From assembly GCA_947561715.1 (NCBI GenBank), contig OX387204.1, positions 17,055,001 to 17,119,000 on the forward strand: a stretch of DNA of 64,000 bases. The letters run 5' to 3'. Both the position numbers and the translations under genes were made by a program. This stretch comes from Ascidia mentula (taxonomy: Eukaryota > Chordata > Ascidiacea > Phlebobranchia > Ascidiidae). This document shows, in pieces, positions 581 to 63,555 of this stretch; the first letter of the stretch is position 1, and every line of letters begins with the position of its first letter. The notes under the pieces were generated by a model, which saw nothing but the letters and a program-made list of their open reading frames with translations, was not told the origin of the DNA and made no database searches.

Positions 581-3500
581 ATGTCAGAAGCAGTAAACAG
601 TTGTGTGATGATCTGGACGTGTATTATGTTGATATCGCAAAAGTTTGGCTGTAAGTGTTTTATTTGACTATTTTGATTCAAGAAATGTACAAGTTCATTG
701 TGAGCAAGGCAGTTATCGTTCCATTGTAGGTTCCTCATCGAAACCATGCACATATCGTTTCTTTTCAATGTCCAATGACAAACGAACTTGGCAGGATGCG
801 AAGGAACGATGTATTGAGCTTGGTGGAAACCTTGCGAGAATTCTTGATACCGAAACACAAAACAGACTTGTTCGTCTCGCAAACAACAATAATAGAATGT
901 GTAAAAAAAACATTTGTACTAATTTAAATCTGTTTGGATATTTTTTCCAATAAAAATTATCACGTCATTCAGAAACAGAAAGCAATTTTTTTTCTTGTTT
1001 TCCAGCTTGCTTTTTAGGTGGTAGACGTTTTGGAGACAAATTTACGTGGCCGGACGGAGTTGTTTTTTACAAGTGGAAAGGAACAGGTTTTCGTTTCGTA
1101 AATCTTCCTTCATGAATTTATGACTAACCCATATCAAGTATCATGATTAAAGTTTGAATTTAAATAAAAAATATAATTCAAAAATTTTATCCCGCATTTT
1201 CAATTCAAGTGGGCAAAGAAGAGATAGATAACAATCATATCTATATTAGTCAAAAATATCCTAGGAAAACATGTCGTTTGTTTGTTACGATTCAAGGTTA
1301 TGGTATGGAGGGTTCGCCAATAATGTCATTGACCGGTAAAGAATATACAGCCTGGTTATTTAACCCAAATCCCGGACCTGGTGAATGTGTTCTGCTTGAA
1401 AATTCAATAAATTGGGGTTGGTATGCTAGTGATTGCAACAAAAAATTCAACTATATTTGTGAATTTAAAGGTGGGTTTATTAATATTTTGTTATTTAAAC
1501 GGCTCACATGGTGCTGTTTGCAGATCAACCACGAAAAATCGTATTTTCACAAACAAGTTACTCCGCATTTGTCGGTGATACAATCATTATCAAAGGAAAA
1601 ATTACCGAACCTTATGTAGAAGCGCTAACTATCAGAGCAATTTACAACCTAAACAGACGGGTAACTTTAGCAACCAACTACAGAGGTGTGGACTTCAGTT
1701 ATTATATCCAGGATGTTAGTCCTTCTCATTTTGGTAACATTACAATTGAAGCCATTGGAGTCGAATCGAAATGCAAAATTTCCAAGAGCACTTTTTTGAC
1801 TGAAGGTAACCATAACAATTTTGGATAATGAAGGTCGGGTTCCAGTACTGTAACATTCATTCACATGTACGCAGCAAAGATTGAGATTGACAGAAATAAA
1901 ATAGTTGCGAAAAACTATGGAAATTATGAATCTGTGAGTTGCTCTTTACCAGAAAATAATCCCACCCTACTTACATGGATAAGGTATAATGTATTTGTTG
2001 ATACCCGTGATTACAACAGTGGAAAAAAGTTTTTTACACCGCACTACCATATAAATAATGTTTTCTTCTGAACTCCACTAGGTTTAAGTATCGTTTGTCA
2101 TTGTTGTGTTTAGATTGTTTTTCACACTGCAATTAGAAATATTTGCTATCCGATTTACATGTAGCCCATTTGGGTAAACCAGTCCCTAATCGTCACTACT
2201 CATATGTATAATCCTAAAAAGTTATCATTGTCATCAGAATGTTTGTCCAGAAAAACTAAGACGTTTCAAATGTATTGCAATTAGTCAAATTTTAGCAAGG
2301 AAATGTGATAACATGTCATATTTTTCGCGCAGAAATGACGCAATGGTTACCAACAATAGTAGTTCCAACGTTTATCAATCTGCCAGCTCCACCCGCAGAT
2401 CATCCACTCTTCACATAACTGCGACTGATGTGAGTGAATCGGGGAATTACACTTGCATGGGAACAAATATGGTTGGATCTAAACTGGAAAGGAAAACTTT
2501 ACAAGTGTTCGGTTAGTCAAAATTTTTGTTTCAAAATTTTTGAATCTTAACGCAATAATGACGATCTCAATCGCATACAGACGTGTAGATAGCCATGCAC
2601 GTGACAGACATAGAACGCTAGTGAACAACAAAAATCAATATTAAACAACCCTTTAGTCTGCCACTGTATTAATTTTTTTCAGTGTTATGAAATATTCTAA
2701 TGGGTGCGATCGTCCCTGCTTGGTTCTGCCGCTGCCTTTCACAGCTAAATTCATTTTTTGCAGTTGCTCCAAATATATCTTTGAGCAACACAATAATTGT
2801 TGCTGAATACGGCCAACAAATCATCGTTGATTGTATTTCGTTTGGATTTCCCAAACCAACCTTATCGTGGTCAAGGTTCGTACACTGTTTTAGTCGCTCT
2901 TTTGTAACGTTACGCAATTTAGACAAATAAATCAATTGATGCCAATTGAAACTTTAAAATGAATTTTTTTCAATTTCTACTAACTTTTTGGTAAACTTAT
3001 GGAATTGTGAAACTTGTGCAGAAGCGGAAAAATTATTGGAGCATCATCGATTTTCCAAATTACAGAAAACAATGGGAAATATAAGAGTCAAGTTGGTTTG
3101 TTGCTTAGTAGAAGTGACATCATGCAATCTGGAAATTATAAATGTGTTGCAGAAAATATGTACAGAAAAGTCACTGAAAAGTTAACTATATATGGTAAGA
3201 TTAACATATATGTATTTAAAATACACAGTCTTTTGCTTTTATTGCTCTCATTTAACCAATTCATCTACAGTACCAGCAAATATATCGGTTGCTCAAACCA
3301 GCAAAGTTGTTAGAATTCCAGAAACGTTTACAATTGGTTGTGAATCCTGTGGTTTTCCATTGCCGACAACATATTGGATTCGGTAAAGCGATTGGCAAAA
3401 TGAAAACTTTGTTTCGCGCTACTCCGTATATTCATGAAAAAAAATACGTTGTGTCCATAGAAATGATCATGTAGCAAACTGTACTACTAACACCTCCTCG

Positions 3501-6500
3501 GTTTGCCAAAATCGTACAACCGTCGGCGAATTCAAATCCATATCCTGGTTAAACTTCAATATCACCAATATAGAAGATGCTGGAAGTTATCACTGCAAAG
3601 CCTCTAATATTCCTGGTTTGAAAATGACCTCAGAAACCTTTACTCTTCTTGGTGAGTTTTTGAGTTCTTCTGTTATTTGTTTTTGAGGAAAATAAAAACT
3701 TGTACTTTTAGTCACACCCAACATTTCCTTGTCATCAAGTTACGTCACAATAGCAGAGGGCGAATCTGCAAACGTAACCTGTACTTCATTCGGATATTAC
3801 AACCCAATAGTGTACTGGACACGGTGAGGGATTCGTGTTACGCGGTTTCTCAATTTCGCAGAAAGCATGTTATGTAAAGTAAAACTTTCTCGTTTTCAGT
3901 TTCCCCAAAAACATATCGACTAATTCGTCGAATCGAATAAATTTTAAAACTACGAGTTTCGGTGAATTTAAGGCGGAAAGTACACTTAATATTCAAACTT
4001 CCGATGTCGGTGATTCTGGTACTTTTGTTTGCCACGCTGGATCTAGTTACGAAAATTTCAACTTTTCCGTTTTGTCCCCACAACAGACACAAGGTATGAC
4101 GGAATTATTTTGCTGTTTGGCAAATGATTTTTCACGCTTTACTTTTTATTATCATTCCAGTTTCTTTGAATAATGACACCGTATGTTAATTAGTAAAAAC
4201 AAAAGCGACATTTGATCCACAAAGCGATGCTATTCGGCCCTTTGTTCAATAATTTCATGATATTTATACGTTTGCTCGTTTTTGGTAATGCTATTTGTTT
4301 TTAACATACTATTTGACTCCATTTTTTCTGTATATATTAGTTATTTTTCTAGGTTTATCTACACCACAATGGTTGCTACCAGCTGTTATCGGATTGTCAT
4401 TTTTATTCATATCGGTCATAATTGCTGTGCTAGTGTTGGTGAAGTTGAGGTAAATGACCTTTAATTATAACACGTAAACCGCAAGCAAAGCTATTACTAA
4501 GTTAAATATTTTAGGGTTCGTGCGCAAAACAGAAAGAAACCCGAAATAAACCTTGAAACTGTCAACCCAGGTAAAAAAATATACAGCCTGTTAATGCGTT
4601 TTGTCGAATTGTCAAGTAAGAATGTTGACAATAATGTTAAAAAAAATTCGACCACTGGTATTTCAGATTCCTCAGACTCTTCAGTTGAAGCAAAACCTCG
4701 TCCAGACTGGACTACGACGAGAATTTTCAAGTTTTATTTATGTGATCTTTATGTGGAGAGCACCAAGCACGGACATCAAGCATTGAAAGCTCAACATGAG
4801 GTGCGTTGTAAAGTTAACGTTTTGTCAACCTAAGTTTTTCTGCATAATTTATTCAGGACCGGGTGATATGCAAATACACGGTATACGCAGTGGGCCCCAT
4901 ATTCATACTTTTAAAAAGAGATTTAGAAACTGCTCCTGTGAAACATTTATATTTCGTGTGGTTTGTTTTGACAGAAAATAAGAACACAATCAAGAAGTCT
5001 TCTCAGTGTTGAAAGTGCTGAAAAAAACCCAAGTCGAAATCGTTACAAGAATATTTTACCATGTATGACTTTAAGTTTTTTTATTCATAAACATATGTTT
5101 TTAAATATCGTGTACATATAGATGAAAACAACAGAGTGATTCTTCGCGGATTAAAAAGCAACGAAAATGATTACATTAACGCATCATATGTTGAGGTTTG
5201 TCACTGCAGCAATGATTTCCTGGAAATTTTACATTGTTGGTAATATCTCTCAGGGTTTTAAACAACCGAACAAGTGGATTGCAACCCAAGGCCCCATCGA
5301 TACAACTGTGAATGATTTCTGGGCGATGGTTTGGGAACAAAATGTCAGAGTAATTGTAATGCTTACCAATATAAATGAGAGGGGAAAGGTATTGCAATTA
5401 AACTTTACGATTATTTTGCAAACCGTTATCATGTCAAAAGAAATTTTAAAGTCAAAGTGCGCCGTCTACTGGCCTGAACACATCGGTCACTCCCAAAACC
5501 ACAAACAGGTGCAAGTCCACTTAACTGATGTCATGGTTAAAGGAAGTTACGTCATCAGAAAGATGAATATCAAAGAAGGGAACACCGCATATGTATCGGT
5601 AGTTCATACATTGGGTTTACACCAAATTCATATAACACCTGTTTCTTCAGTTGCAGGAACAACGCACTGTGACGCAATATCACTTCACTGCTTGGCCCGA
5701 CCACGGAGTTCCACAAACTACCACTGGTTTGCTCAGATTTGTGGAAGAAGTTTTTATCCATATGGAGCACTGGAAGACATCTTTGAACATAGATATTTCC
5801 ACTATTGTTCACTGCAGGTTCGATTAATGTTGTACGGCGATATGCAATTCACTGGTGTATTTTCCACGTAGACTATGATGTTCATATATTGACTCAAATG
5901 TTGATGTCTTAGTGCCGGCATTGGACGAACTGGAACTTTTATTGCTTTTGATTATTTAATGAAGGAGTTAAACCAAACTGGTTCAGTTGATATTTTCAAG
6001 GCAGTTTGTCGTTTGAGAGAGCAAAGAATGGAAATGGTGCAAACTTCCGTGAGTTAACAGAGAGTACGTTTAGGAAACTATTTATTGAAATCCGTCTTTT
6101 GTGCTGCAGGAACAATATGTTTTGCTTCACCGACTTCTTTACGAGTCTTTAAACTTTATGGAAACGAATTTGGATGTTAAACAGTTTAACCAAAGATTAG
6201 AACAACAAAAAAGGCAAGAAAACGTGCATTTTTGATGTGTGTCGATTTTGCAAACGTTTGCTTGTGATTTAGGCTGCCGTATTCTAACAGCATAAAAAAG
6301 GAATTTGAGGATTTAAGTAAGATCGTTAATGTCCTACAAATAAACTGCATGGAGGGGACAGGCGGTAAACTTAATAATGACACATAATAGTTTAAGCACT
6401 ATTAAACCTTATTTTGTTATGATTAGATCATTCATCCGAACAAAAAACGAAGCAAATTGAATACTACGAATTGGAGGTGAAGTTTTCTTTGAAAAACAAT

Positions 6501-7385
6501 AATGTTATAATAGTTTATACATATGTGCTGATCCTTTAATTTTTCAGTCGTATCATGGCACGAATCGTCTGACAATTGGGAAAGAACCTAAATCTGATCA
6601 AGTGGAACAATTTTTCAGAATTTTGTTTCAGAAGAGCTACGGAATCGTTTTGTTTCTTGGGAAGTCGGAAGTTTTCGTAAGACGCAACATTTCTTTGCTT
6701 AAACTACTTTTTCAACTCATGTGCTTAGGAGAATATTTCCTCGCAATTGAACACAAATTTGATTTTGGGTGATCTTTGTGTGGAATGTGTTGAACAAACC
6801 AATCGTGGAAGTGCAAAAGTAAGGGATCTTTTGATTAAGGATCGAAACGCACAAGTAAGGGTTTCAACTATTCTGCGATCTACATTTCCATGAAACTTGG
6901 CTATTTTTAGAAAAATACAACATGGGTTGAATTCAACTTCTTTCCTGAGAAGGAGAGACCAGAACACGGCAAAGACTTCATAAATTTCATTTCGTTTCTC
7001 AACACTAATATTGCCAAGGAAGATAAAAATAACATGTTATTGATGTCCAGGTAAGAGTGTTAATGTTTAGTAGGTCAGAAGATAATGCTTTTGGGAAGTA
7101 TTTTAATTTTTATTTAATTGTTTTCCTGTAGAGAATTTTCAAAGTCCGTGATGTTCTGTGTTGTCTGGAATCTCATCTCTCGTTACGATGTCGAAAAATT
7201 AGTGGATGTGTTCAAAACGGTCAAAGATATCAGTGAGTCTATGTGTGATCTGCATCTCTCATTGGTAGTAATAAAAACAATATTTTCCTTGAAACCCTGC
7301 AGTAAATTTGTTGCAATTATTAAAGGAAGAATACAAGGCTTGTTATTCTCTGATCAAGTTGTACCTTGACCACGAGGGAAAGTGA
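581..7385 (+). CDS. copy 1: CTLD-Ig receptor tyrosine phosphatase, type A
   Basis: Single-pass membrane phosphatase read as about 30 exons. Exon 1 (581-650) encodes a signal peptide starting [12 protein letters not shown]. Then: CTLD (694-900, 1006-about 1086, about 1203-1470), Ig a (1524-1805), Ig b (1875-1983, 2333-2511), Ig c (2764-2875, 3022-3194), Ig f (3271-3382, 3461-3651), Ig g (3712-3823, 3900-4093), transmembrane exon (4353-4449), juxtamembrane exons (4515-4570, 4667-4800), PTP D1 (4975-6213) and D2 (6273-7364), stop 7383-7385. All exons I followed are open and the introns have GT-AG ends, except one GC-AG intron after 6213. Ig modules d and e of copy 3 are absent. Known of the family: RPTPs dephosphorylate phosphotyrosine at the inner membrane face under control of their ectodomains. 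The ligand is unknown. The limits of CTLD exons 3 and 4 are the least certain. Confidence 0.85.
694..1470 (+). other. CTLD of copy 1 (three exons)
   Basis: C-type lectin-like domain. Exon 2 carries the first cysteine region ([15 protein letters not shown]) and the helix with [13 protein letters not shown]. Exon 3 (from 1006) carries [14 protein letters not shown]. Exon 4 carries [14 protein letters not shown] and the closing YICEF. No EPN or QPD sugar/calcium motif is visible, so binding of carbohydrate cannot be assumed. The domain opens the mature protein directly after the signal peptide. Intron 1 (651-693) is only 43 nt. Confidence 0.8.
1524..4093 (+). other. Ig-like array of copy 1 (modules a, b, c, f, g)
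   Basis: Five Ig-like modules. Module a is one exon and is the least canonical. The others use two exons each: the first half ends in a TW-R, SWSR, YWIR or YWTR strand (the Trp of the Ig core), the second half holds D-G-Y-C motifs such as [33 protein letters not shown] and [11 protein letters not shown]. Introns between modules are phase 1 and those inside modules phase 2, so modules can be lost or gained without a frameshift. The intron between 3194 and 3271 joins the start of the intron after module c to the end of the intron before module f, which marks where modules d and e were lost. Confidence 0.8.
4353..4800 (+). other. transmembrane and juxtamembrane exons of copy 1
   Basis: The exon 4353-4449 encodes a hydrophobic helix ([16 protein letters not shown] and on to VLVLVKLR) with a basic stop-transfer end. 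Exon 4515-4570 adds a basic [17 protein letters not shown] stretch. Exon 4667-4800 starts with an acidic-serine run ([11 protein letters not shown]) and continues with a helix ([20 protein letters not shown]) like the wedge that precedes RPTP D1 domains. The order fixes the Ig array outside and the PTP inside the cell. Confidence 0.75.
4975..6213 (+). other. PTP D1 of copy 1, all catalytic motifs present
   Basis: Seven exons (4975-5062, 5122-5195, 5254-5388, 5452-5598, 5657-5817, 5913-6048, 6110-6213) encode the classical PTP motifs in order: [58 protein letters not shown] (general acid Asp), [11 protein letters not shown] (nucleophile Cys and P-loop Arg, split by the intron 5818-5912) and [15 protein letters not shown] (Q-loop). 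By family knowledge this should be an active phosphatase. The last exon ends at a GC donor. Confidence 0.85.
6273..7385 (+). other. PTP D2 of copy 1, cysteine-less pseudophosphatase
   Basis: Exons 6273-6364, 6427-6476, 6548-6676, 6729-6854, 6911-7050, 7132-7232 and 7303-7385 form a second, degenerate PTP domain ending in [20 protein letters not shown]. The WPD region reads [16 protein letters not shown], and the stretch matching the HCSxGxGRTG loop reads [12 protein letters not shown]: the catalytic Cys and the P-loop are gone, while the following helix ([13 protein letters not shown]) is kept. RPTP D2 domains are often inactive and regulatory. Here the loss is complete rather than a one-residue change, and copy 3 shares it. 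Confidence 0.75.
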
Positions 7386-9120: not shown

Positions 9121-9215
9121 AAGATTGGTATTTGGGTGGTAGAAGAGTTGAAAATAAGTTTGTTTGGCCACCGGTGGAATATATATATTGGAAACGTATT
9201 AGGAAGTTTTCTGCA
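9121..9215 (+). pseudogene. relic CTLD middle exon
   Basis: Reads YLGGRRVENKFVWPPVEYIY, matching CTLD exon 3 of the main genes ([19 protein letters not shown]) with diverged residues. It runs without an intron into the phosphatase relic at 9221, so it is a rearranged leftover, not a working exon. Confidence 0.5.
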
Positions 9216-9220
9216 TGATA

Positions 9221-9560
9221 ATCTTGTCAAAAACACATGACATTTACACCAATTATGTCCGTAGACGATTACAACAGAGTGCACCTTCGTGGACTTGAGG
9301 GCGACGAAAACGACTACATTACGGTGCTGAATGGAGTGGCAAATAAACGTTTCTAATTAGGGTTTTAAACAACCCCAAGTTACTTTAACTTGTGTTAACT
9401 TTATTTGTTGCATTTATCTAGGAGCAATACATATTCTTGCACACCTTGATTGCACAAAGTGTTGAATGTTGCGAAACCCAAACAAATATATTTCTGGACT
9501 GAAGGAAAACGTTGAGCAACTGGAATGGTTTGTGACCTGCATACAAAAAACTGATTAGCA
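9221..9560 (+). pseudogene. collapsed relic of a type B phosphatase 3' end
   Basis: Holds a piece of the type B exon DYNRVHLRGLEGDENDYI, then only the first bases of the next exon (gggttttaaacaacc) joined directly to the last intron and last exon (EQYIFLH-LIAQSVECCETQ). The catalytic exons between are deleted. The same deletion junction (aacaacc/ccaagtta) is found on the minus strand at about 27790, so the relic was already collapsed when the block was duplicated and inverted. Confidence 0.7.
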
Positions 9561-11225
9561 TAAAATGTAAATCATGCACTCGCAGTTCACCTTCTTCAAG
9601 TGACGTCATCAACGAGATATACAGCTCGGTTAAGTTGTCTGATTACGTCATTGCTTCAGCAAAGCCGAGAAAGAATTAAATTCCTAAATATTCGGATTGC
9701 TTTTCCACGTTGGGATTTTCGGTGTTCAAATTCGCGGTCGGGCCAATTGCCCAAATGTCACAATAGCTGAAGAATCTGAAGAATAATTAACAATTCGTAA
9801 TTGTGACACCTGTGACTCGACGAGACGCCGTTAGATATGTTTTAAAATTTGTGTCTCAAAATTGTCAAGCTTGTTGACGTAAATCTGCCTGGGAGTGTAC
9901 TTTTGAAAAATATTATAATTTAATGACGTGAACCACTTATTTTATGTCATGACAATCATCCTTTTGTGTTTCGTCAATGACTTCAATGAGTTTAGCATCT
10001 TGGCTGCGTTGCTATACATGTGTTTATCTTCATGATTACATTTCTTCATGTAAACCGAAGTTAAAAATATTTATTAGGACTTGTTCTATTACTATTTGAA
10101 GTCTAAACAACGATCATACAAACAGCTCGGTTAAAGTTGTTCCCAAAACTACGTACAAATATTAAAATGCAAAACCTATGAAGACCAGTTCTATTGTTAT
10201 TAGATTTGCGTATTTACATTGTTGCCCATAAAGACATAAATTCGATATGTTGTGCCTCTATACACACTGACTAACAGCTAATGTCACGGTTGATAACAAT
10301 GGAAAGTTTAGTAGCTGATCTAGCTTGGGGCCAGTATAGGCGGCCCCTAAAGTTCACGAAACGGTTTTGGGAGGACGCTTTAAGCCTCAGGTCTTTGTGA
10401 GATTGTAACGTAATATTGCATATGTAGGTTTATTGAGTCGTGTTGTACCATCGCAGAGTCATGTTAATTTATTCCAACAAGGCATACGAAAGGCGATCGT
10501 TCGCATACAATCTTTTTAGAGCATTAGTCCTAACTGGGACAGCAAGTGGGAAAAATTTCTGACCACTACGATTCAAAGTTTAAGTACCACTCTCACATTC
10601 AACAACTACATCTGTGAATATTGAAACCAAACCGGACATGATGTGGAAACGTTCCTGACATAGTTTTGATGTCGAACAAGTATTAATTTTTAGGCCTAAT
10701 GTAGTCGTATCTCGTTTGTGAGGGCCGCCGCAACCCAAACAAACCACCCACGCAACAACTATTCCCACGGAAAAAGGCAACCTGAACATTGGCATATTTG
10801 CATTGCAAGGTATTTTAAGCCTTGCATTATGAATATTTTGGAACAATCCACACAGCAGGTTAACTTAAAATTGCTATGTCGAAATATATCTCTTCATATG
10901 AATAAGGAATGGTTCGTATCCCTTTCTTAGGAAATCCGTGTGCAAATACCTTTTTTTTAAAGCTGTAGCCCGTGATTTTTCTGTTACTTTACGCACACAC
11001 GTTTATTTGGTATCATTAACTCGGGTAACTTTGACAGTGAAGGGTTACTTTTTTTGCATTCGCATGAAAGTTGTCCTCTTTGAAAACATGTTCCTTTTTT
11101 GAATAATGTGTTGACATCGTTTTGTGAGCACCAATGACAGGAGCAGTATGTTGTTAATTTCAGCAGATCTCACCTTTCAAGAAAATTTAAACATTAATGT
11201 CTTAGAATTTAGCATTCAAGTAAAG
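9561..11225 (+). other. 3' flank of the relic and 5' flank of copy 2
   Basis: No gene supported. Contains one of the conserved paired cAMP-response-type sites (TGACGTCA at 9601-9608, variant ttacgtca at 9643-9650). From about 10250 the sequence is the shared upstream block of the family (ctaacagctaatgtcacgg, gcttggggccagtatag). From about 10640 it is the near-promoter block also found at 1-580, with a 3' splice acceptor ending at 11163. Confidence 0.5.
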
Positions 11226-14200: not shown

Positions 14201-14585
14201 GGTTTCCCAGCAAATATTGTCGCAAGGTCGATACCACGTAACGAAACGCCTTCACTTAACAAAAGTGGACGCAGCTTATGGCGGAGTTTACCAATGTTGG
14301 GCAGAAAACCGCAAGGACACAAAACTTCTGTCTCAAACCAGAAAAGAAATCACTCTGAAAGGTAGTAGTGACCATAAACTGTTCAAGTCTCAGTTAAACT
14401 GTTAGTTGTTTTTAGTTCGTCCAAACATAACACTTTCTGCATCAGAAATTATTGCGGAAAAGTTTCATCAGCAATACGTTGATTGTGTCTCCTATGGGTT
14501 CCCAAGACCCAACGTTACATGGAAAAGGTAAACACATGATTTAGCATCAGTTCAACTAATCCGTAACTTTGGATTTAAATTTTAG

Positions 14586-15029
14586 AAATAAATCTGTTAA
14601 CGGAGCTACAACTTCTAATATCTCCACGAGTATTGTAAATAACACGAAGTATTCGCAAACAGCACGATTGATTTTTATGATTGACAATGTTGCGGATTCA
14701 GGAACTTACGTTTGTCAGTCAACAAACAATCATATTGACAAGGTGGAAAAGGCGTTTGTAATTAGAGGTATCCTTACTTTTTTTAACTGCCGAACTACAT
14801 CACATACCAAGAGTTTACGTATTGTTGTTACAACCACACGACAGGTTGCCTTTGTAGCTGGTATGTATGCTTGTCTTGTGAGCAATGTTACTCACACATG
14901 CAAATATTCATTCCTATTTATTGGGTTAGGTGTCAACGTATTTGTGTCAAAATGGTTCATTCCCACAGTTATTGGATTGTCTGTTTTGATTATTTTACTC
15001 GTATCTGTGGGTGTGGTAATCAAGTGGAG
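14586..15029 (+). other. fused Ig e / transmembrane exon of copy 2
   Basis: The second half of Ig e ([20 protein letters not shown]) runs through the former donor (attagag/gtatcc) straight into the end of the Ig g exon (NCRTTSHTKSLRIVV) and on through the membrane segment (WFIPTVIGLSVLIILLVSVG), with no stop over 444 nt. Compared with copy 7, about 790 bp holding Ig f and most of Ig g are missing. Both edges share GGTAT, which suggests a microhomology deletion. The result is a shorter ectodomain kept in frame. Confidence 0.75.
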
Positions 15030-15500
15030 GTAAATCTTCTTTTCTTTGTTAAAATAAAAAATGTTGGCCTTTTGGTAATATTCAATGTTTAGGAAACAAA
15101 TATGTGCAACTATTTCCACACGAGAAAGAAACGCATCAGAAACTTCGTCAGAATTTAAATTGAACAAAAGAGTGATCTGGAAGTACTCCCCAGGTATTCA
15201 CAAGATAAGGTTTTTAAGAATTTAATCCGTTTTAAAAAATGTTTACTTTTCAATTTCAATCATTAGAGGACGGATCTGAAGACAACTATAACACACAGAT
15301 ACGTAAGATTTACTTGAGTGAATTTTACACGAAGAGCGCAGATAATTCACACAAAGCAATCAAATCACAGTATCAGGTACGTGTATAACTTCTGCTATTT
15401 CTGTTCGCAAAATATCTATTTAGTATTTTTTGCTTTGTGCACATAGACAGATTCATAGATTGTTGACGCAAAAGTTATGTGATATATAAATGCCTTGCAG

Positions 15501-28100: not shown

Positions 28101-28149
28101 AGCAGTTGACCAATGAGGATAAACAAACTGGCGCATAGTCCTAAAAGCA

Positions 28150-28309
28150 GTTATTCAATGCATTTCCGCAAAAAATCATGCCATCACCAGTCTGACGTCA
28201 GTTAGGTCAGCTTTATATCACTATGGAGAAAGACCAACCACTCCCCTTTAAACTGATAATAGCATAGGTTTTAGGTTTTGCCGGAACGTCTTGAATAAAT
28301 AAAACATGT
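28150..28309. mobile_element. MITE-like element, diverged copy
   Basis: Same element as at 15693-15859, in reverse, more diverged at its left end. The right end cttgaataaataaaacatgt is intact. It lies next to the relic phosphatase exon, as expected if the relic came from a type B gene that already had the element in its intron. Confidence 0.5.
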
Positions 28310-28329
28310 CAAATTATATCAAATAAATC

Positions 28330-33466: not shown

Positions 33467-33499
33467 GTGATATATTTTTTCAAAACTTACCTGCCGACT

Positions 33500-37370: not shown

Positions 37371-37379
37371 GCATAACGT

Positions 37380-42600: not shown

Positions 42601-42702
42601 CTGCACAAGGTTGCTCATTTTCAAAAAGCTTATCAATTAAGTGGAAATACGAGAACGTTCCTTTTTAAAAGAAACCATCGATTTTATTGTCAAAAAAATA
42701 CG
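42601..42702. other. head-to-head junction of copies 4 and 5
   Basis: About 100 bp between the acceptor of copy 4 and the first homologous base of copy 5. Apart from the acceptor at the left edge it matches neither gene. The flanking genes form an inverted repeat with arms of unequal length. Confidence 0.6.
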
Positions 42703-52700: not shown

Positions 52701-53363
52701 ATCGAAGAAGCAAACACCTTATATGTTTCGGTATACTAGGATTAAATAGAAGCTCTTCGTTGCTGTTGTTGTTGTTACATCGCTTTGAATCCAGGAACAA
52801 CGAGTTGTGACTCACTACCAATTTATTGCTTGGCCCGGTTTTGGAGTTCCACAAACAACAACTGACTTTCTCACATTCACAAACCAGTTTCAGAAGGAAA
52901 TGGATCGAGTAAATCGAACTTTGCGAACTCAGGTTCCCACTGTGGTCCATTGTAGGTAAAAATAGTGATTGTATACCTTAGTAAACTCAGTGACTGCGAA
53001 ATAACCTTCAAGTATGTTTATCAAGCGGAGGTGCCGGCAGAACTGGGACTTTCATTGGTTTTGTTTATTTGTTGGAGGAATTAAATCAAACTGGCTCAGT
53101 TGATGCTTTCAAGGCCGTTTGCCACCTGAGAGAGCAAAGAATGGAAATGGTTCAAAATGCGGTAAATGCTTTTTCTTTTCCCCGACATATATTAACTTGT
53201 GTTAACTTTATTTGTTACATTTATCTAGGAGCAATACATATTCATGCATCACTTGGTTGCACAAAGTGTTGAATGTTGCGAAACCCAAACAAATATTACT
53301 GGACTGAACGAAAATGTTGAGCAACTTAAATGGTTTGTGACCTGCATACAAAAAACTGATTAG
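46779..53363 (+). pseudogene. copy 6: type A front fused to type B phosphatase end
   Basis: Signal peptide 46779-46848, CTLD 46892-47098, 47204-about 47280, about 47390-47648, Ig a 47701-47982, b about 48052-48160 and 48545-48723, c 48981-49092 and 49275-49446, d 49501-49615 and 49735-49935, e 49991-50102 and 50161-50342, f 50399-50512 and 50592-50780, g 50842-50955 and 51030-51223, type A membrane exon 51485-51581, type A tail, PTP from 52118, TAG 53361-53363. Stops lie in the last CTLD exon (TAG 47440, TAA 47470, the latter shared with copies 7 and 8) and in Ig e (TAG 50291, CAG in other copies). The PTP starts as type A and ends as type B, in frame. The stop in Ig e has no obvious splicing escape except skipping, so I call it a pseudogene, though a young one. 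Confidence 0.7.
52118..53363 (+). other. chimeric A/B PTP domain of copy 6
   Basis: Up to [17 protein letters not shown] the exons are type A (also GFEQPNKW, with Glu for Lys/Lys-type GFKQ). From TNPDQNKK onward they are type B: CALYWPQ, AWPGFGVP, VHCSGGAGRTG and the type B last exon; D2 is absent. The switch lies in the 20 bp shared by both parents at 52482-52501. The frame is kept through the junction. Confidence 0.8.
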
Positions 53364-54959
53364 CATAAAATGTAAATCATGCACTCACAGTTCACCTTCT
53401 TCAAGTGACGTCATCAACGAGATATACAGCTCGGTTAAGTTGTCTGATGACGTCATAGCTTCAGCTAAGCCGACAAAGAATTGAACACTTTAATATTCGG
53501 ATTGTTTTCCTACGTTGGGATTTTTGGTGTTCAAATCCGCGGTCGGGACAATTGCCCAAATGTCACAATATCCCAAGAATCAGCTTAAAATTAAGTCTCA
53601 AAATTGTCAAGCTTGTTGACGTAAATCTGCCGGAATTGTGCTTTTGAAAAACATTATAAGTTAATGACGTAAACCGCTCATTCTATGTCATGCAAAACAT
53701 CCTTTTGCGTTTTGTGTTTCTTCAATGACTTCAATGAGTTTAGCATCTTGTCTGGCTGCTACACCTGTACTTATGTTCAAGAATACATTTTTTTATGTAA
53801 ACCGAAATTAAAAATATTTATTAGAACTTGTTCTATTACTATGTGAAGTTTAAACAACGATCATACAAACAGCTCAGTTGAGGTCGTTTTTGCAACTACG
53901 TGCAAAGGTTGAAAGGCAAAACCTATGAAGGCCAGTTCTATTTTGTTAGATTTGTGTTTTCGCATTTTATCCTTTAAAGACATAACTTCTATATGTTGTG
54001 CCTATATACACACCGACTAACAGCTAATGTCACGGTTGATAATAATGGAAAAGTTTAGTAGCTGATGTAGCTTGGGGCCAGTATAGCCAGCCCCTAAAGT
54101 AGGGTCCACGAAGCGGTTTTTGGAGGAAGTCTAAGGTCTTTGTGAGATTGTAACGTAATATTGCATATGTAGGTTTATGTGCAATGTTACTTGAGTCGTT
54201 TTGTGCTATCACTGAGTCATGTTAATTTACTCTAACAAGGCGTTAGGAAGGTAATCGTTCGCATACAATATTTTCAGAGCATTAGTCCTAACTGGGACAG
54301 CAAGTCGGAAAAATTTCGGACTGCTGCGATTCAAAGTTTAAGTACCACTGTTACATACAACAACTACATTTGTGATTGTTGAAACCAAACTAGCTATGCT
54401 TTGGAAGCAATTATTTTGGGTATTTGGTAACGTTATCTATATACTCTGCCGACATAGTTTTGATGTCACATAATTATGAATTTAGGCCCACAATATGTCT
54501 CGTTTTCGACCAATATTTGTGTTGAGTTGAACACGAAGGCCACTGTGACCCGAACAAACCACCTACGAAACAATTATTGCGACGGCCAAAGGTACACTGA
54601 ACAATGGCATACTTGCATTGAACTGTGCATATTTTGGAACTTTCCGTACACAAGGGTAACTTAAAGTTGATGTTGAAATATTGCCTCTCAATTTGCATAG
54701 GGAATTGTTCTCATCCCTTTCTTAGAAAATCCGTGTGCATTTACTTTTTTTATAAGCTGTAGCCAGTGATATTTCTGTTACTTTACGCACTCACGTTTAT
54801 TTGGTATCATTAACTCGGGTAACTCTGACAGTGAAGGAATTTTTTCTTTGCATTCGCATGACAGTTGTCCTCATTGAAAACATTTTTTTAATTAAGACGG
54901 TTCTGACCTTTCACGATTTTTTAACCTAAGATGTCTTAGAATTTAGCGTTCAAGTAAAG
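53364..54959 (+). other. spacer between copies 6 and 7
   Basis: Same content as 45163-46778: paired TGACGTCA at 53406-53413 and 53448-53455, then the family upstream block in the diverged version. No gene supported. Confidence 0.5.
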
Positions 54960-57900
54960 ATGTCAGAAGCAGTAAACAGTTGTGTGATGATCTGGACGTG
55001 TATTTTGTTGATTTCTCGCTGTAAGTGTTTTATTCAACCATTTTGATTCAAGAAATGTACAAGTTCATTGTGAGCAAGGCAGTTAAAGTTCCATTGTAGG
55101 TTCCACATCGAAACCATGCACATATCGTTTCTTTTCAATGTCCAATGACAAACGAACTTGGCAGGATGCGAAGGAACGATGTATTGAGCTTGGTGGAAAC
55201 CTTGCGAGAATTCCTGATGCCGAAACACAAAACAGACTTATTCGTCTTGCAAACAACAATAATAGAATACGTAAAAAAACATTTGTACCAATTTAAAACT
55301 GTTTGAATATTTTTTCCTATAAAAATTATCATGTCATTCAGAAACAGAAAGCAATTTTTTTTTCTTGTTTTCCAGCTTGTTTTTTTGGTGGTAGACGTTT
55401 TGGAGACAAATTTACGTGGCCGGACGGAGTTGTTTTTTGCCGGTGGAAAGGAACAGGTTTTCGTTTCGTAAATATTTTTCATGAATTATTGGCTAACCCA
55501 TATTAATTACCATGATTAAAGTTGGAATTTTAGGAAAAAAATTATTCAAAGACTTCTTCTTTATCCTATGTTATATGTTTAAACCAAGCGGACAAAGAAC
55601 GGATAGATAACAATCATAACTATATTAGTCAAAAATATCTTTAGAAAACATGTCGTTCGTTTCTTACGGTTTAAGGTTATGGTATGAATGGTATGCGACA
55701 AATGTCTTTGACCGGTAAAGAATATACAGCCTGGTTAAATAACATATATCCCGGAACTGGTGAATGTGTTCGACTTGAAAAACATTTCAAATGGGGGTGG
55801 TATGCTGGTGATTGCAACAGTAAAATTAACTATATTTGTGAGTTCAAAGGTGGGTTCATCAATATTGTAATATTTCAACGACTGACATGATGCTGTTTGC
55901 AGATCAACCACGAAAAATCGTATTTTCGCAAACAAGTTACTCTGCAATTGTCGGTGAAACAATCATTATCAAAGGAAAAATTACAGGACCTTATGTAGAA
56001 GATATAACTATCACAGCAATTTACAACCTAAACAGACGGGTAACTTTAGCAACCAACTACACGGGTGTGGACTTCAGTTATTATATCCAGGATGTTAGTC
56101 CATCTCATTTTGGTAACATTGCAATTGAAGCCATTGGAGTCGAATCGAAATGCAAATTTTCCAAGAGCACTTTTTTGAATGAAGGTAACAATAACAAGTT
56201 TGGTTAATGAAGGTGGGTTCCAGTACTGTAACATTCATTTACATTTACGCAGTAAAGATTGAGATTGACAGAAACATAATAGTTGCGGAAAACTATGAAA
56301 ATCATGAATCTGTTAGTTGCTTTTTATCAGAAAACCATCCCACCCCAATAACATGGATGAGGTATAAAACGTTTGTTGATATCTGTGATTACAACTGTTG
56401 AAAAAAGTTATTTTACCACGCACTGCCAAATCAAACACATTTTTAGATCTTATTTTTACACTGCAATTGGAAATATTTGTTGTTAAATCCGTTGTACATG
56501 CAGCCCATTTGAGTGATATTTATCTTGTGGGTTAACCACCCCCTAATCGTCTCTACACACATGTATATAATCCTCAAAAGTTTGGGGACCCTGATGTTAG
56601 TGAACAAAATATTTGTCCAGAAGAACTAATACGTTTCAAAGCAAATGCAAGAAGTCAATTTTAGTGAAGAAATGAGGAAATAACAAGTGACATTTATTCC
56701 GCAGAAACGATGCAACGGTTTCCAACAAAAATAGTTCCAACGTTTACCAATCTGTCAGCACCACCCACAGTTCATCCACTCTTCACATAACAGTGAATGA
56801 TGTGAGTGAATCGGGGAATTACACTTGCATGGGAACAAATAGGATTGGATCCAAACTGGAAATGAAGTATTTGCAAGTGTTTGGTAAGTCAACATTTTTT
56901 GTTTTTCAATTTTTTTTTTAAATTTTACGCAGTAATAACGATTTCGTTCGCATAGATAGTCATGCATGTGCCAGACAAAGCACACTAGTGAAAAACAAAA
57001 ACAAAAAAAATCAAATATTTTTAAGGGGGGCGATCTTCCCTTCTTCGTTCCGCCCCAGACGTACACAGCAAAATTCATGGATACATTTAAAGTAAAAATC
57101 ACCTTGTTTTAGTTAAAGTAAACATCACATTATCCACAAGAAATATGGACTTGGAACAATGGGAGAATGTAACGGTTGATTGCACTTCGTATGGAAATCC
57201 CAGGCCTGTGGTTAACTGGTACAGGTAAGATTGTAACATTTTAACAGGAATTGCTTATAAGATGTAAAACTTAACAGAAGGGTTTTTGCGTTACACCCTA
57301 ATATTTGTAAAACTAATATCTTCCTCTTTATTGTTTTTAGGGGAGAAAATTTCATAACAAGCTTTGCATATTCGGTGTCGGTTTCCCAGCAAAAATTATC
57401 GCAAGGTCGATACCACGTGACGAAACGTCTTCACTTAACAAAAGTTTATGCAACTTATGGCGGAGTTTACGAATGTTGGGCACAAAACCACAAGGACACA
57501 AAACTGCTGTCTCTAACCAGAAAAGAAGTCACTTTGAAAGGTAGTAGTGACCATAAACTGTTGCAATCCCAGCTAAACTGTTAGAGGTATTTAGTTCGTC
57601 CAAACATAACACTTTCTGAGTCAGAAATTATTGCTAAAAAGTTTCATCGGCAATACGTTGATTGTGTCTCCTATGGGTTTCCAAGACCTAACGTCACATG
57701 GAAAAGGTAAACACATGATTTAGCATCAGTTCAACAAATTCGTAATTTTGGTTTTAAATTTTAGAAATAAATCTGTCATCGGAGCTTCAAATTCTAATAT
57801 CTACACGAGTATTGTAAATAACACAAAGTATTCGCAAACAGCTCGATTAAATTTTATGATTGATAATGTTGCGGATTCAGGAAGTTACGTTTGTCAGTCA

Positions 57901-60900
57901 ACAAACAATCATATTGACAAGGAGGAAAAGGCGTTTGTAATTAGTGGTATCCAATCGTAATGATTTGCTTTTATTGCTCTCATTTAACCAATGCATCCAC
58001 AGTACCAGCAAATATATCGGTTACTCAAACCAGCAAAGTTGTTAGTATTCCAGAAACGTTTACGATTGGTTGTGAATCCTATGGTTTTCCATTGCCGACA
58101 ACATATTGGATTCGGTAAAGCGATTGGCAAAATGAAAAATTTGTTTCGTACTCCGTATATTCATGAAATCAAAAATACATTGTGTCCATAGAAATGATCA
58201 TGTGGCAAACTGCACTACTATCACCTCCTCGGTTTGCCAAGTTCGTACAACCGTCGGCGAATTCAAATCCATATCTTGGTTGAACTTAAAGATAAACCGC
58301 ATAGAAGAAGCTGGAAGTTATCACTGCAAAGCCTTCAATATATTTGGTTTAAAAATGGTCTCAGAAACTTTTACACTTCTTGGTGAAACTGTGATGTTTT
58401 TCGTCCTAAGAATCTTATTGATATTTAGTTATTTTAACATTTTTAGTTGAGACAAACATTTCTCTCACTACAAATTACGTCAGATTGCTGGAAGGTGAAT
58501 CTACAAACGTGACTTGTACTTCATTTGGATATTACACGCCTGTTGTTTATTGGACCAGGTAAAAAATAATTTTCGAAAAAAGCTAAGATTCAAACTTTTC
58601 TTTGACATTTTATTCTTAGATTTTTGGAAAATATATCGAATAAATCGTCAACACGAATATATTATGAAACATTTAACGTGGACAAATTTCAAACGTTAAG
58701 TGTGCTCAATATAAATGTTGCCGATGTTAACGATTCTGGTATTTTTATATGCCGAACTACATCAAATAACAAGAGTTTACGTATTATCGTTACAACCCCA
58801 CAGCAGGTTGCCTTTGCAGCTGGTATGTATGCTTGTCTTGTGAGCAATGTTAGTCACACATGCAAATATTCATTCCTATTTATTGGGTTAGGTGTCAACG
58901 TATTTGTGTCAAAATGGTTCATTCCCACAGTTATTGGATTGTCTGTTTTGATTATTTTGCTCACATCTGTAGGTGTGGTAACCAAGTGGAGGTAAACTTT
59001 TCCGACCTTAATAAATCAAAAAAATGTTGTCCCATTTTAATTATTTGATATTTAGGGAAAAAATATGTGCAAGTATTTCCACACGAGAAAAAAACGCATC
59101 AGAAACTTCGTCAGAATTCAAAATGAATAAAGGAGTGAGCTGGAAGTACTCCCCAGGTATTCGGAAGATAAGACTTTTTAGGAATCAATCCGTTTTAAAA
59201 AAAGTTTACATTATAACCATTAGAGGATGGGCCTGATGACACTTATAACACACGGATACGTAAATTTTACTTAAGTGAATTTTACGCAAAGAGCACAGAT
59301 AATTCACATAAAGCAATCAAATCACAATATCAGGTACGTGTATAACTTCTAACATTTAAGTTGCCAAAATATTCATTTAGTATTTGTTGGTTTGTGCACA
59401 TAGAGTCATAGATTGTTGATACACAATTTATGTGGTATTTGCCTTTCAGAAAATAAGAAGACAATCAAGAAATGCTTTCAGCATTGAAACAGCAAAGAAC
59501 AACCCATGTCGAAATCGTTACAAGAATATTTTACCATGTAAGTTGTTGTTCATTGCACAACGCAAGGTTGGTTGAAAGATTCACAAAACATTTAATGTCA
59601 TGGGAACACTTATAACGATTTACTCATGTTTTAGACATTGGCATGTTTCATTTATTCCAGACGTAAACTTATCCCTTGATCAGTTGAAAGGGGAGTGGTT
59701 AGTCTTTCTCCATAATGATATAAAGCTGACCTGACTGATGCCAGACTGGTGATGATGGCATAAGTTTTAGCAACAATTTCTTGAACAAATAAAACATGTG
59801 AATGCTTATAGCACTATGGGCTACTCTGTTTATTCTCAGAGTTACTGGTTGGAAAAACAAATGGTTTCCTTCCTCACATTCAATACTTCATTTTTAATAT
59901 TTTGTTGAATAAATTAACTTATATGCAAACAGTACGAGGTAAATTGTCCCGGAAGGGCATCACAAAATTTTCTGCATGATAATCTTTTCAAAAATACATA
60001 ACATTTACATCAATTATGTCCGTAGACGATTACAACAGAGTGCTCCTTCGTGGACTTGAGGGCGATGAAAACGACTACATTAACGCATCATATGTAGAGG
60101 TTCGTCACCGTGCTGAATGGAGTGGAAAATAAACTCTTAACGTTTCTAATTAGGGTTTTAAACAACCAAACAAGTGGATTGCAACCCAAGGCCCCATCGA
60201 TACAACTGTAAATGATTTCTGGACGATGGTTTGGCTACAAAAAGTCAGAGTAATTGTAATGCTTACAAATCCAGACCAAAATAAAAAAGTGAGTGTTTTA
60301 TTATTAATTTAGATGCGTAGAACTCAACGCTTTTCACTGTTTAGTCAAGGTGTGCTCTTTACTGGCCCCAGACTTTCGCCCCCTTCAAACTGTACGGCCG
60401 TGTTAACTTGAAACTGCTTAAAGTCCTGAACAAACATGGTTTCATTGTTAGGAAAATGGCAATCGAAGAAGCAAACACCATATATGTTTCGGTATACTAG
60501 GCCTAAAAAGAATCTCATCGTTGTTTTGTTATATCGCTTTGCATCCAGGAACAACGAGTTGTGACTCACTACCAATTTCTTGCTTGGCCCGGTTGTGGAG
60601 TTCCACAAACAACAACTGACTTTCTCACATTCACAAACCAGGTTCAGAAGGAAATGGATCGCGTAAATCGAACTTTGCGAACTCAGGTTCCCACTGTGGT
60701 CCATTGTAGGTAAAACTAGTGATTATATACATTGGTAAACTCAGTGACAGCGAAATAACCTTCAAGTATATTTATCAAGCGGAGGTATTGGCAGAACTGG
60801 GACTTTTATTGGTTTTGTTTATTTGTTGGAGGAATTGAATCAAACTGGCTCAGTTGATGCTTTCAAGGCCGTTTGCCACCTGAGAGAGCAAAGAATGGAA

Positions 60901-61117
60901 ATGGTGCAAAATGCGGTAAATGCTTTTTCTTTCCCCCGAGTTATTTTAACTTGTGTTAACTTCATTTGTTACATTTGTCTAGGAGCAATATATATTCTTG
61001 CACCACTTGATTGCACAAAGTGTTGAATGTTGCGAAACCCAAACAAATGTTTCTAGATTGAACGAAAACGTTGAGCAACTTAAATGGTTTGTGACCTGCA
61101 TACAAAAAACTGATTAG
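54960..61117 (+). CDS. copy 7: CTLD-Ig receptor phosphatase, type B
   Basis: Signal peptide 54960-55020 (three codons shorter than the others), CTLD 55064-55270, 55376-about 55460, last exon to 55849, Ig a 55902-56184, b 56251-56359 and 56703-56884, d 57113-57224 and 57341-57540, e 57595-57706 and 57765-57946, f 58003-58114 and 58192-58382, g plus transmembrane 58447-58558 and 58620-58991, tail 59057-59156 and 59224-59333, PTP 59450-61117. Ig c is absent. All exons after the CTLD are open. The last CTLD exon has TAG 55642 and TAA 55672 if spliced as in copy 1; an acceptor-like tttaag ends at 55675 in the right phase and would avoid both. So it is either a gene with a shortened CTLD or a recent pseudogene. 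The phosphatase lacks the WPD aspartate. Confidence 0.7.
55902..58991 (+). other. Ig array and membrane segment of copy 7 (a, b, d, e, f, g)
   Basis: Six modules. The intron 56885-57112 joins the region before Ig c (acacagcaaaattc) to the end of the intron before Ig d (aaatcaccttgttttag), so the two exons of Ig c and their introns were removed in one event without change of phase. The last exon carries WFIPTVIGLSVLIILL and a Lys-Trp-Arg end. Confidence 0.75.
59450..61117 (+). other. type B PTP of copy 7
   Basis: Exons 59450-59537, 60026-60099, 60154-60288, 60345-60491, 60549-60709, 60780-60915 and 60983-61117, all open. Motifs: [65 protein letters not shown], end FVTCIQKTD. The nucleophile and P-loop Arg are kept but the general acid Asp is Gly. 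By known PTP chemistry such a domain binds phosphotyrosine but turns it over poorly or not at all. Confidence 0.82.
59642..59799. mobile_element. MITE-like element in an intron of copy 7
   Basis: Same element and intron as in copies 2, 4 and 5, slightly shortened in the left arm. Confidence 0.6.
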
Positions 61118-62791
61118 CATAAAATGTAAATCATGCACTCACAGTTCACCTTCTTGAAGTGACGTCATCAACGAGATATACAGCTCGTTGAAGTTGTCTG
61201 ACGTCATAGCTTCAACAAAGCCGACAAAGAATTGAACTCTTTAATATTCAGATTTTTTTCTACGTTGGGATTTTCGGTGTTCAAATCCGCGTTCGGGACA
61301 ATTGCCCAAATGTCACAATCTCCCAAGAATCAGCTTAAAATTAACAATTCGTAATTGTGACACCTGTGACTCGACGAGACGCCGTTAGATATGTTTTAAA
61401 ATTTGTGTCTCAAAATTGTCAAGGTTGTTGACGTAAATCTGCCTGGGATTGTAGTTTTGAAAAACATTGTAAGTTAATTACGTGAACCACTTATTCTATG
61501 TCATGCAAAACATCCTTTTGCGTTTTATATTTCTTCAATGACTTCAATGAGTTTCTTATCTGTGCTGCTACACCTGTACTTATGTTCAAAAATACACTTT
61601 TTTTTATACCGAAATTAAAAATATTTATTAGAACTTGTTCTATTACTATGTGAAGTCTGAACAACGATCATACAAACAGCTCAGTTGAGGTCGTTCCCAC
61701 AACTACGTGCAAAGATTAAAATGCCAAACCTATGAAGACCAGTTTTATTATTATTAGATTTGCGTATTAACATTTTTCCCATAAAGACATAAATTCTACA
61801 TGTTGTGCCTCTCTACACACTGACTAACAGCTAATGTCACGGTTGATGATAATGGAAAAGTTTAGTAGCTGATCTAGCTTAGGGCCAGTATAGGCGGCCC
61901 CTAAAGTTCACGAAACGGTTTTGGGAGGACGCTTTAAGCCTCGGGTCTTTGTGAAATTGTAACGTAATATTGCATATGTAGGTTTATTTGCAATGTTGCT
62001 TGAGTCGTGTTGTATCATCGCAGAGTCATGTTAATTTATTAAAAACAAAGCATAAGAAACGTAATCGTTCTCATACAATCTTTTAAGAGCATTAGTCCTA
62101 ACTGGGACAGCAAGTGTGAAAAAATTCTGACTACTACGATTCAAAGTTTAAGTACCACTCTCACATTCAACAACTACATTTGTGAATATTGAAACCAAAC
62201 CAGACATGAATTGGAAACGTTGCTGACGTAGATTTGATGTCGAACAAGTATTAATTTTTAGGACTAATGATCAGTCGTATCTCGTTTGTGAGGGCCGCTG
62301 TGACCCAAACAAACCACCCACGCAACAACTATTCCCACGGCAAAAAGCAACCTGAACAATGGCATATTTGCATTGCAAGATATTTTAAGCCTTGCATTGT
62401 GAATATTTTGGATCAATCCAAACAGCAGGTTAACTTAAAGCTGCTATGTCGAAATATATCTCTTCATATACATAAGGAATGGTTCTTATCCCTTAGAAAA
62501 TCCGTGTGCAAATACCTTTTTTTTGAAGGTGTAGCCAGTGATTTTTCTGTTACATTACGCACTCACGTTTATTCGGTATCATTAACTCGGGTAACTTTGA
62601 CAGTGAAGGATTACTTTCTTTGCATTCGCATGAAAGTTGTCCTCTTTGAAAACATGTTCCTTTCTTGAATAATGTGTTGACATCTTTTTGTGAGCACCAA
62701 TGACAGGAGCAGTATTTTGTTATTTTCAACAGATCTCACCTTTCAAGAAAATTTAAACATTAATGTCTTAGTATTTAGCATTCAAGTAAAG
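61118..62791 (+). other. spacer between copies 7 and 8
   Basis: Type B downstream block with TGACGTCA at 61160-61167 and 61199-61206, followed by the upstream block in the version of copies 1 to 3 (shared open frame from 62267). No gene supported. Confidence 0.5.
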
Positions 62792-63555
62792 ATGTCAGAA
62801 GCAGCAGACAGTTGTGTGATGATCTGGACATTGTTTTTGTTGATTTCTCAAGAGTTTGGCTGTAAGTGTTTTATTTAACTATTTTGATTCAAGAAATGTA
62901 CAAGTTCATTGTGAGCAAGGCAGTTATCGTTCCATTGTAGGTTCCTCATCGAAACCATGCACATATCGTTTCTTTTCAATGTCCAATGACAAACGAACTT
63001 GGCAGGATGCGAAGGAACGATGTATTGAGCTTGGTGGAAACCTTGCGAGAATTCCTGATGCCGAAACACAAAACAGACTTATTCGTCTTGCAAACAACAA
63101 TAATACAATGCGTAAAAAAACATTTGTACTAACTTAAAACTGTTTGGATATTTTTTCCAATAAAATTGATCACGCCATTCAGAAACGGAAAGCAATTTTT
63201 TTTTCTTGTTTTCCAGCTTGTTTTTTAGGTGGTAGACGTTTTGGAGACAAATTTTCGTGGCCGGACGGAGTTGTTTTTTGCCAGTGGAAAGAAACAGGTT
63301 TTCGTTTCGTAAATATTTTTCATGAATTATTGGCTAACCCATATTAATTACCATGATTAAAGTTTTAATTTAAGTAAAAAATTATTCAAAAACTTCTTAT
63401 ATATCCTATCTTATATTTTTGAACCAAGTGGACAAAGAATGAATAGATAACAATCATGACTATATTAGTCAAAAATATCCTAAGAAAACATGTCGTTCGT
63501 TTCTTACGGTTTAAGGTTATGGTTTGACTGGTATGCCACAAATGTCTTGGACCGG
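62792..63555 (+). pseudogene. copy 8: start of another receptor gene, broken in the CTLD
   Basis: Signal peptide exon 62792-62861 (MSEAADSCVMIW), CTLD exons 62905-63111 and 63217-about 63300 (FGDKFSWPDGVVFCQWKE), then part of the last CTLD exon with a TAA at 63512 shared with copies 6 and 7. Homology ends at GACCGG (63555), where others continue TAAAGAATATACAGC. Either an element is inserted here and the gene resumes beyond the window, or the gene is cut by a rearrangement. Confidence 0.65.

What the first reader, a model, noticed from the sequence alone, without database searches (positions are those of the whole stretch)
581..63555. A clustered family of CTLD-Ig receptor tyrosine phosphatases
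Eight copies or pieces combine a C-type lectin-like domain, up to seven Ig modules, one membrane pass and a PTP. I know of no described RPTP family with this exact domain order. Together with tandem and inverted copies, chimeras and relics, this looks like a rapidly evolving recognition cluster, comparable in style to allorecognition or innate-immune receptor clusters. The architecture is read from the sequence; the immune role is inference.
Basis: partly seen in the sequence, partly recalled or inferred. Interest (0 to 1): 0.88.

Follow-up and report, generated by a model that had tools for sequence, protein, structure and literature searches.

The report
Sea squirt lectin-Ig phosphatase receptor cluster
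A sea squirt chromosome carries a long row of genes that appear to join a lectin-like head and immunoglobulin domains to a protein-tyrosine-phosphatase tail, and the same kinds of head sit on two kinds of tail, one with a complete active site and one lacking a key catalytic residue, which looks like a fast-changing paired recognition system.

Summary
Confirmed and extended. By lengths and mitochondrial code the window matches chromosome 8 of the solitary sea squirt Ascidia mentula. Spliced models give signal peptide, C-type lectin-like domain (CTLD), an Ig-like exon, six Pfam Ig domains, one membrane pass and a classical protein tyrosine phosphatase (PTP). Of 26 close CTLD exons in C72:16.90-17.20 Mb, 25 have a same-strand PTP exon 4.6-6.1 kb downstream; the exception is copy H, split by a Maverick-like insertion. 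Long ordered exon runs with fitting phases make one gene per unit far likelier than separate genes.

Type I: canonical D1 ([13 protein letters not shown]), with a degenerate D2 found after 7 of 8 copies. Type II: one PTP, catalytic Cys kept, WPD changed to WPG in 20 of 20 copies, pooled dN/dS 0.30. On the CTLD tree the tail label is as mixed as shuffled labels, as in paired receptors. CTLD exon E4 varies most.

Best reading: an exon-swapping family of recognition RPTPs with active and probably substrate-trapping members. Architecture is strong; splicing, ligand, immune role and expression are untested. Copies A and C show no defect in the exons tested; the other window copies are truncated or carry a stop.

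The parts
581..7369 (+). Copy A: type I gene; signal peptide, CTLD, Ig1, Ig2, Ig3, Ig6, Ig7 (Ig4-5 absent), TM, PTP D1 with WPDHG and [10 protein letters not shown], degenerate D2. No defect flagged in the exons tested; ends are approximate.
11226..17323 (+). Copy B: type II gene lacking Ig6, Ig7a and most of Ig7b; one stop in E27; PTP with WPGCG and RNRC in place of RNRY
18530..26175 (-). Copy C: type I gene, exons E2-E27 found with no flagged defect; CTLD, Ig1-7, TM, PTP D1 ([15 protein letters not shown]), degenerate D2
38199..42599 (-). Copy D: type II gene without CTLD and Ig1 to Ig3a; Ig3b-Ig7, TM, PTP with WPGHG
42682..45283 (+). Copy E: type II fragment, part of Ig7, TM, PTP with WPGCG, tail
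46779..53484 (+). Copy F: chimera, type I Ig7, TM and PTP exons to E22, type II PTP exons from E23 (WPGFG); one stop in Ig5b (E13)
54960..61235 (+). Copy G: type II gene without Ig3; PTP with WPGCG; with the later exon starts the only flagged stop is in the tail exon E28
62907..63555 (+). Copy H: CTLD exons of a further gene, cut inside exon E4 by an inserted element; the rest resumes beyond the window at C72:17133968
20082..20242 (-). Exon E25 of copy C: WPD loop and VHC of the active site
52795..52955 (+). Exon E25 of copy F: WPG in place of WPD, VHC kept
24952..25230 (-). Exon E5 of copy C: Ig-like module 1 without Pfam match, first row of the alignment given to AlphaFold
18530..19626 (-). 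Degenerate second PTP domain (D2) exons of copy C
9129..9676 (+). Relic downstream of copy A: CTLD exon piece (52% to E3) and type II exons E22, E27, E28
27508..28529 (-). Relic: CTLD exon pieces (43% to E4) and type II exons E22, E27, E28

Best explanation
The window is part of a tandem array of single-gene receptor tyrosine phosphatases. The outer part (CTLD on a stalk of up to seven Ig-like domains) binds a surface or soluble ligand through the variable half of the CTLD; binding changes clustering or position of the receptor and so the phosphotyrosine level of nearby signalling proteins. Type I receptors would remove phosphate (complete D1, D2 as a regulator). Type II receptors keep the phosphotyrosine pocket and nucleophile but lack the general acid, so they would bind and shield substrates rather than dephosphorylate them well, opposing type I. 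Exchange of outer exons between the two tails keeps both kinds supplied with the same heads. Shown: exon order, domains, two tails, WPG in every type II copy examined, low dN/dS in both PTPs, mixing of CTLDs between tails, chimeras. Inferred: splicing into one mRNA, surface display, ligand binding, trapping, opposition, recognition role.
For: 25 of 26 close CTLD exons with a same-strand PTP exon 4,631-6,146 bases downstream (from the lists). 29 exon runs of 12-27 exons with expected splice sites and open frames in most exons. Pfam domains. Best PDB hits of D1 are RPTP alpha, sigma, epsilon and LAR. WPD in 8 of 8 type I, WPG in 20 of 20 type II, VHC in 28 of 28; type is given by the better matching reference exon, and the E26 motif agrees (AGIGRTG 8 of 8; GG-x-GRTG 18 of 20 type II, one GRTV, one partial). 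RNRY in 17 of 19 type II E21 exons, RNRC in 2. Pooled dN/dS 0.43 PTP I, 0.30 PTP II, 0.42 Ig1-6, 0.80 CTLD E3-4. Tail label changes 7 times on the tree of CTLD exons E2+E4 (24 units), shuffled mean 6.9-7.0; well-supported branches force at least 4. Adjacent type II 17140624 and type I 17147703 share 98.8% of CTLD E2+E4 bases. Precedent: PTPRU lacks activity yet binds substrates of related phosphatases (PMC7320164, abstract and passages).
Against: No transcript was examined. No pooled group has dN/dS above 1; E3-4 near 0.8 could be relaxed constraint. Of 29 runs, 7 span CTLD to PTP with no flagged defect, and 5 of those 7 lack one or two whole Ig domains. One type I unit (17166313) shows no D2 in the 6 kb fetched after it, and 3 of 7 D2b matches carry a stop. 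Only the acid is changed in type II, so residual activity is possible. Gene conversion confounds dN/dS and trees. Only 5 of 20 inner branches of the CTLD tree are well supported; the Ig tree has only 4 type I rows.
Confidence: 0.58

Rival explanations
1. An ordinary tandem-duplicated RPTP array, with adhesion or developmental roles, in which unequal crossing-over and gene conversion alone make copies, chimeras and relics; type II tails are enzymes on their way to loss.
For: Many units with a missing exon or flagged defect; no pooled dN/dS above 1; a duplication spaced about 18.6 kb with 98.3% identity over 14.4 kb shows recent exchange.
Against: WPG in 20 of 20 type II copies with pooled PTP dN/dS 0.30 is not what decay gives; non-synonymous variation is highest in CTLD exon E4 (pN 0.149); heads are mixed between tails.
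Confidence: 0.25
2. CTLD-Ig exons and PTP exons are separate or alternatively ended genes; the main product is a soluble CTLD-Ig lectin.
For: No transcripts seen; a protein with one Ig and one CTLD is reported from crayfish (PMC4944128, start of abstract in a search listing).
Against: TM exons, fitting phases and long exon runs; narrow spacing in 25 of 26.
Confidence: 0.07
3. A gamete self/non-self (self-sterility) receptor array rather than an immune one.
For: The matched species is solitary (PMC11109543); ascidian self-sterility through polymorphic receptors is recalled, not looked up here.
Against: No expression data; copy number and phosphatase tails are not a feature of the systems I recall.
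Confidence: 0.08

Closest known systems
Receptor PTPs of type R2A (LAR, PTPRS, PTPRD) and R2B (PTPRM, K, T, U)
   Same: Ig domains outside, one TM, D1-D2 in type I (domain layouts recalled); LAR and PTPRS are among the best PDB hits of D1
   Different: CTLD at the front; no fibronectin III or MAM match in the spliced copy C pieces; single-PTP type II; large tandem array
PTPRU, catalytically inert RPTP
   Same: RPTP with an altered WPD motif that may act as a substrate decoy (PMC7320164, abstract and passages)
   Different: PTPRU has WPE and changed pTyr and PTP loops; most type II copies here keep RNRY and HC(X)5R and change D to G
Vertebrate paired receptors (recalled; FcR-like families also in PMC2413239, start of abstract in a search listing)
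   Same: Clustered genes, closely related heads on opposing tails, exon exchange
   Different: Those tails carry or recruit ITIM/ITAM signals (recalled); here the enzyme itself is the tail
Botryllus fuhc-linked receptors
   Same: Tunicate, clustered, polymorphic recognition genes (PMC12065747, passages)
   Different: No CTLD mention in that text (0 occurrences); colonial species; CD45-like RPTPs appear there as signalling partners
Proteins with CTLD plus Ig in crayfish (PcLec3) and snails (CREPs, recalled)
   Same: CTLD and Ig in one protein (PMC4944128, start of abstract in a search listing)
   Different: PcLec3 has 252 residues with one Ig and one CTLD, no room for a PTP

Membership tests
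Classical receptor PTP | PTP domain with HC(X)5R | tested here: met
   Y_phosphatase 1.2e-81 (C), 5.8e-76 (F); VHC in 28 of 28 E25 exons; GRTG in 8 of 8 type I and 18 of 20 type II E26 exons. Cys and Arg lie on different exons, joined here by model.
Classical receptor PTP | One membrane-spanning segment between outer domains and PTP | tested here: met
   Hydrophobic exon E18 between Ig7 and PTP, read from the sequence; no TM predictor was run
Classical receptor PTP | WPD general acid | tested here: inconclusive
   Met in type I 8 of 8, not met in type II 20 of 20
R2A or R2B RPTP | Fibronectin III repeats (and MAM for R2B; recalled) | tested here: not met
   No fn3 or MAM match at E 1 or better in spliced copy C pieces
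C-type lectin-like domain proteins | Pfam Lectin_C above cut-off | tested here: met
   40.5, 47.5, 41.6 bits for C, A, G and 49.3 for a diverged relative; cut-off 22.6
Ca-dependent sugar-binding C-type lectins | EPN or QPD and WND motifs (recalled) | tested here: not met
   EPN/QPD in 0 of 24 and WND in 0 of 24 E4 exons; the second reads WYA, WYT or WHA
Paired receptors | Closely related heads on different tails in one cluster | tested here: met
   CTLD tree mixes tails, 7 changes, shuffled mean 6.9-7.0
Paired receptors | Opposite signalling shown by experiment | not testable with these tools
   needs assays
Allorecognition or immune receptors | Polymorphism between individuals and expression in relevant cells | not testable with these tools
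   only one assembly could be searched

The most novel reading that the evidence does not exclude
A paired receptor system in which the opposing signals are made by the receptor's own tail: one set of CTLD-Ig heads sits on working phosphatases and on naturally substrate-trapping ones (WPG), and the array swaps heads between them, giving an invertebrate chordate a recognition repertoire built on phosphatases rather than on ITIM/ITAM motifs.
Probability: 0.35. Interest if true: 0.86.

Novelty: new variant of a known kind. Interest (0 to 1): 0.68.

Why it matters
Humans have 21 receptor PTPs (PMC7320164, passage). Here one genome holds at least 131 places that match one PTP exon (P3) at E 1e-6 or better (exon places, not proven genes), many in arrays, and in this array with a lectin-type head. 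If the two tails act in opposition, this would be a recognition system that uses enzyme and trap directly, in a relative of the vertebrates, and a natural test of what acid-less RPTPs do.

Tried and rejected
Separate-gene reading: rejected on exon runs, spacing and phases. First exon model with long E2, E4 and E7: dropped. A diverged relative (L035) shows shorter E2 and E4 (its E4 starts even later than mine); the later start of E7 rests on an acceptor seen and on the pattern of the other Ig exons. The long model had made F, G and many type II copies look broken, so the shorter one was chosen with those stops in view. Lectin_C scores do not decide it: 40.6 bits with E3 and 41.3 without for the long model of C, 40.5 for the short model of C. 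Positive selection: not shown; all pooled groups are below 1. Single exon E21 type I gives 1.47 on few changes, E22 type I has no synonymous difference, E9 gives 0.95. Rfam at the gathering threshold: nothing in the window. E5 as a Pfam domain: no match. A fuller list of the other arrays could not be fetched. A CUB guess for an ORF near 8.7k was not borne out (no Pfam match). Scripts ended with a division error after printing part of their tables; completed them.

Full report
Source. The window is C72:17055001-17119000 of a 195.8 Mb genome in 79 contigs. Its mitochondrial contig (19,461 bases) needs the ascidian code: AGR falls at positions that read well as glycine. A published assembly of Ascidia mentula has 197.0 Mb, chromosome 8 of 19.66 Mb and a 19.46 kb mitochondrial genome (PMC11109543, abstract and passages); C72 is 19,661,885 bases. 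I take the window to be A. mentula chromosome 8; this is a match of lengths and code, not of names, and the held genome is about 1 Mb shorter.

Gene structure. Self-BLAST finds the copies and their direct and inverted relations. Hand models give: signal peptide exon; CTLD in three exons E2-E4; Ig-like exon E5; six Ig domains each in two exons (phases 1-2 and 2-1); TM exon E18; juxtamembrane exons; PTP exons E21-E27; a short tail E28 in type II. Outer domain boundaries are phase 1, as in exon-shuffled proteins. Pfam supports CTLD, six Ig and PTP. Copies C and A show no defect in any tested exon (E1, the type I E20 acceptor, the type I E27 donor, the end of E28 and the D2 exons were not in that test; an AG or GT was accepted at the expected place or 3 or 6 bases off).

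Two tails. A and C carry WPDHG and [10 protein letters not shown] and then a second, degenerate PTP: for copy C Pfam 1.3e-5 over part of the domain, with FPA where WPD would be and no Cys or Arg at the active site as I align it by eye. D2 matches follow 7 of 8 type I units; unit 17166313 has none in the 6 kb fetched after it, and 3 of 7 D2b matches hold a stop. B, D, E, F and G carry one PTP in which WPD reads WPG. Over the 28 runs with a countable exon E25 in the 299 kb examined (279 kb around the window plus L034 and L035), 8 of 8 type I read WPD, 20 of 20 type II read WPG and all 28 end in VHC. One further short fragment (16977262) also reads WPG. RNRY is kept in 17 of 19 type II E21 exons (RNRC in two, copy B among them), and GRTG in 18 of 20 type II E26 exons (copy B). 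Two diverged relatives in L035, near 17.245 and 17.250 Mb, read WPDHG, which suggests that WPG is derived. Pooled dN/dS of the PTP exons is 0.43 (type I) and 0.30 (type II), so type II looks constrained as a protein. Asp to Glu at this place cuts PTP1B activity by several orders of magnitude and PTPRK activity about 115-fold (PMC7320164, passage); Asp to Ala is the classic trapping change (recalled). Trapping by WPG is a reasonable but untested inference.

Array. One search gave 51 ascending exon runs, 29 with 8 or more exons (in fact 12-27): 25 have both E2 and E25; four lack E2 (copies D and E, a piece at 16968256, and the far part of H). Seven span CTLD to PTP with no flagged defect: 16910775, 16961451, 16988195, 17029328 (all four without Ig3), 17044270, A (without Ig4-5) and C. 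Genome-wide, the CTLD exon E2 probe finds 67 places, with close copies also on C1:9.55-9.57 (3), C73:4.46-4.49 (4) and C2:15.82 Mb (1). The P3 probe finds 131 places at E 1e-6 or better, a lower bound. At C72:5.516-5.522 Mb a Lectin_C, an Ig and PTP exons lie in the same order on one strand, so the architecture may recur in a second array; I could not fetch it.

Shuffling. F is type I up to E22 and type II from E23; a unit at 17007131 switches between E20 and E21. On the tree of CTLD exons E2 and E4 (24 units: 16 type II, 8 type I) the tail label needs 7 changes against a shuffled mean of 6.9-7.0, and well-supported branches force at least 4; only 5 of 20 inner branches are well supported. The Ig tree (21 units, 4 of them type I) needs 4 changes against 3.8 and says little. 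Adjacent type II 17140624 and type I 17147703 share 98.8% of CTLD bases. E4 has the highest pN of the exon sets (0.149), E2 is conserved (0.028); for E3-E4 together dN/dS is 0.80, with pS also raised (0.169). Variable columns of E4 fall in the loop before KEYTAW, at the place of EPN/QPD, and before WGW, by my reading the ligand-facing part. EPN/QPD and WND occur in 0 of 24 E4 exons, so classical Ca-dependent sugar binding is unlikely; a Ciona CD94-like protein is also described as lacking carbohydrate binding (PMC5465252, passage).

What is not shown. No transcript, protein, ligand, individual variation or activity. The first Ig-like exon is only weakly Ig-like. Literature: open-access PMC full text only; searches listed no paper that I recognise as describing a CTLD-Ig RPTP, but I read listings, not those papers; most subscription papers are not held. 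I saw passages of PMC12065747, PMC5465252, PMC2638020, PMC7320164, PMC11109543 and PMC6040629, and only listings with abstract beginnings of the others.

Recounting mended these: exon counts per run (12-27), bases examined (299 kb), D2 in 7 of 8 rather than all type I units, RNRY and GRTG not universal, 3 close copies on C1. None of these moves the odds enough to change them.

Verdict. It is a new variant of a known kind (RPTP) with an unusual head, arrayed, with active-looking and acid-less tails.

Noticed in passing
window 63556-64000 and L028: Copy H is split inside CTLD exon E4 by about 15.4 kb; separate ORFs in L028 look like packaging ATPase, integrase, capsid, protease and PolB pieces of a Maverick/Polinton-like element (my reading; no family search was run).
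   Followed up: partly
window 7809-7919 (-), 17997-18107 (+), 29770-29880 (+): A CTLD exon on the strand opposite to the type I gene lies 1-2 kb beyond its D2 in 7 of 8 type I units; an eighth such exon at 29.77k lies by a relic.
   Followed up: partly
window 32693-33502 (-): Open C2H2 zinc-finger array of 84-base units between the receptor copies.
   Followed up: no
window 30659-31055: Tandem repeat of about 20 bases, open on one strand.
   Followed up: no
C2:4.18-4.34 and C2:5.98-6.32 Mb: Two other groups of PTP exons; outer domains unknown.
   Followed up: no
C1:22.4-27.6 Mb: Most of the 150 scored Lectin_C places of the genome lie here, a CTLD-rich region.
   Followed up: no
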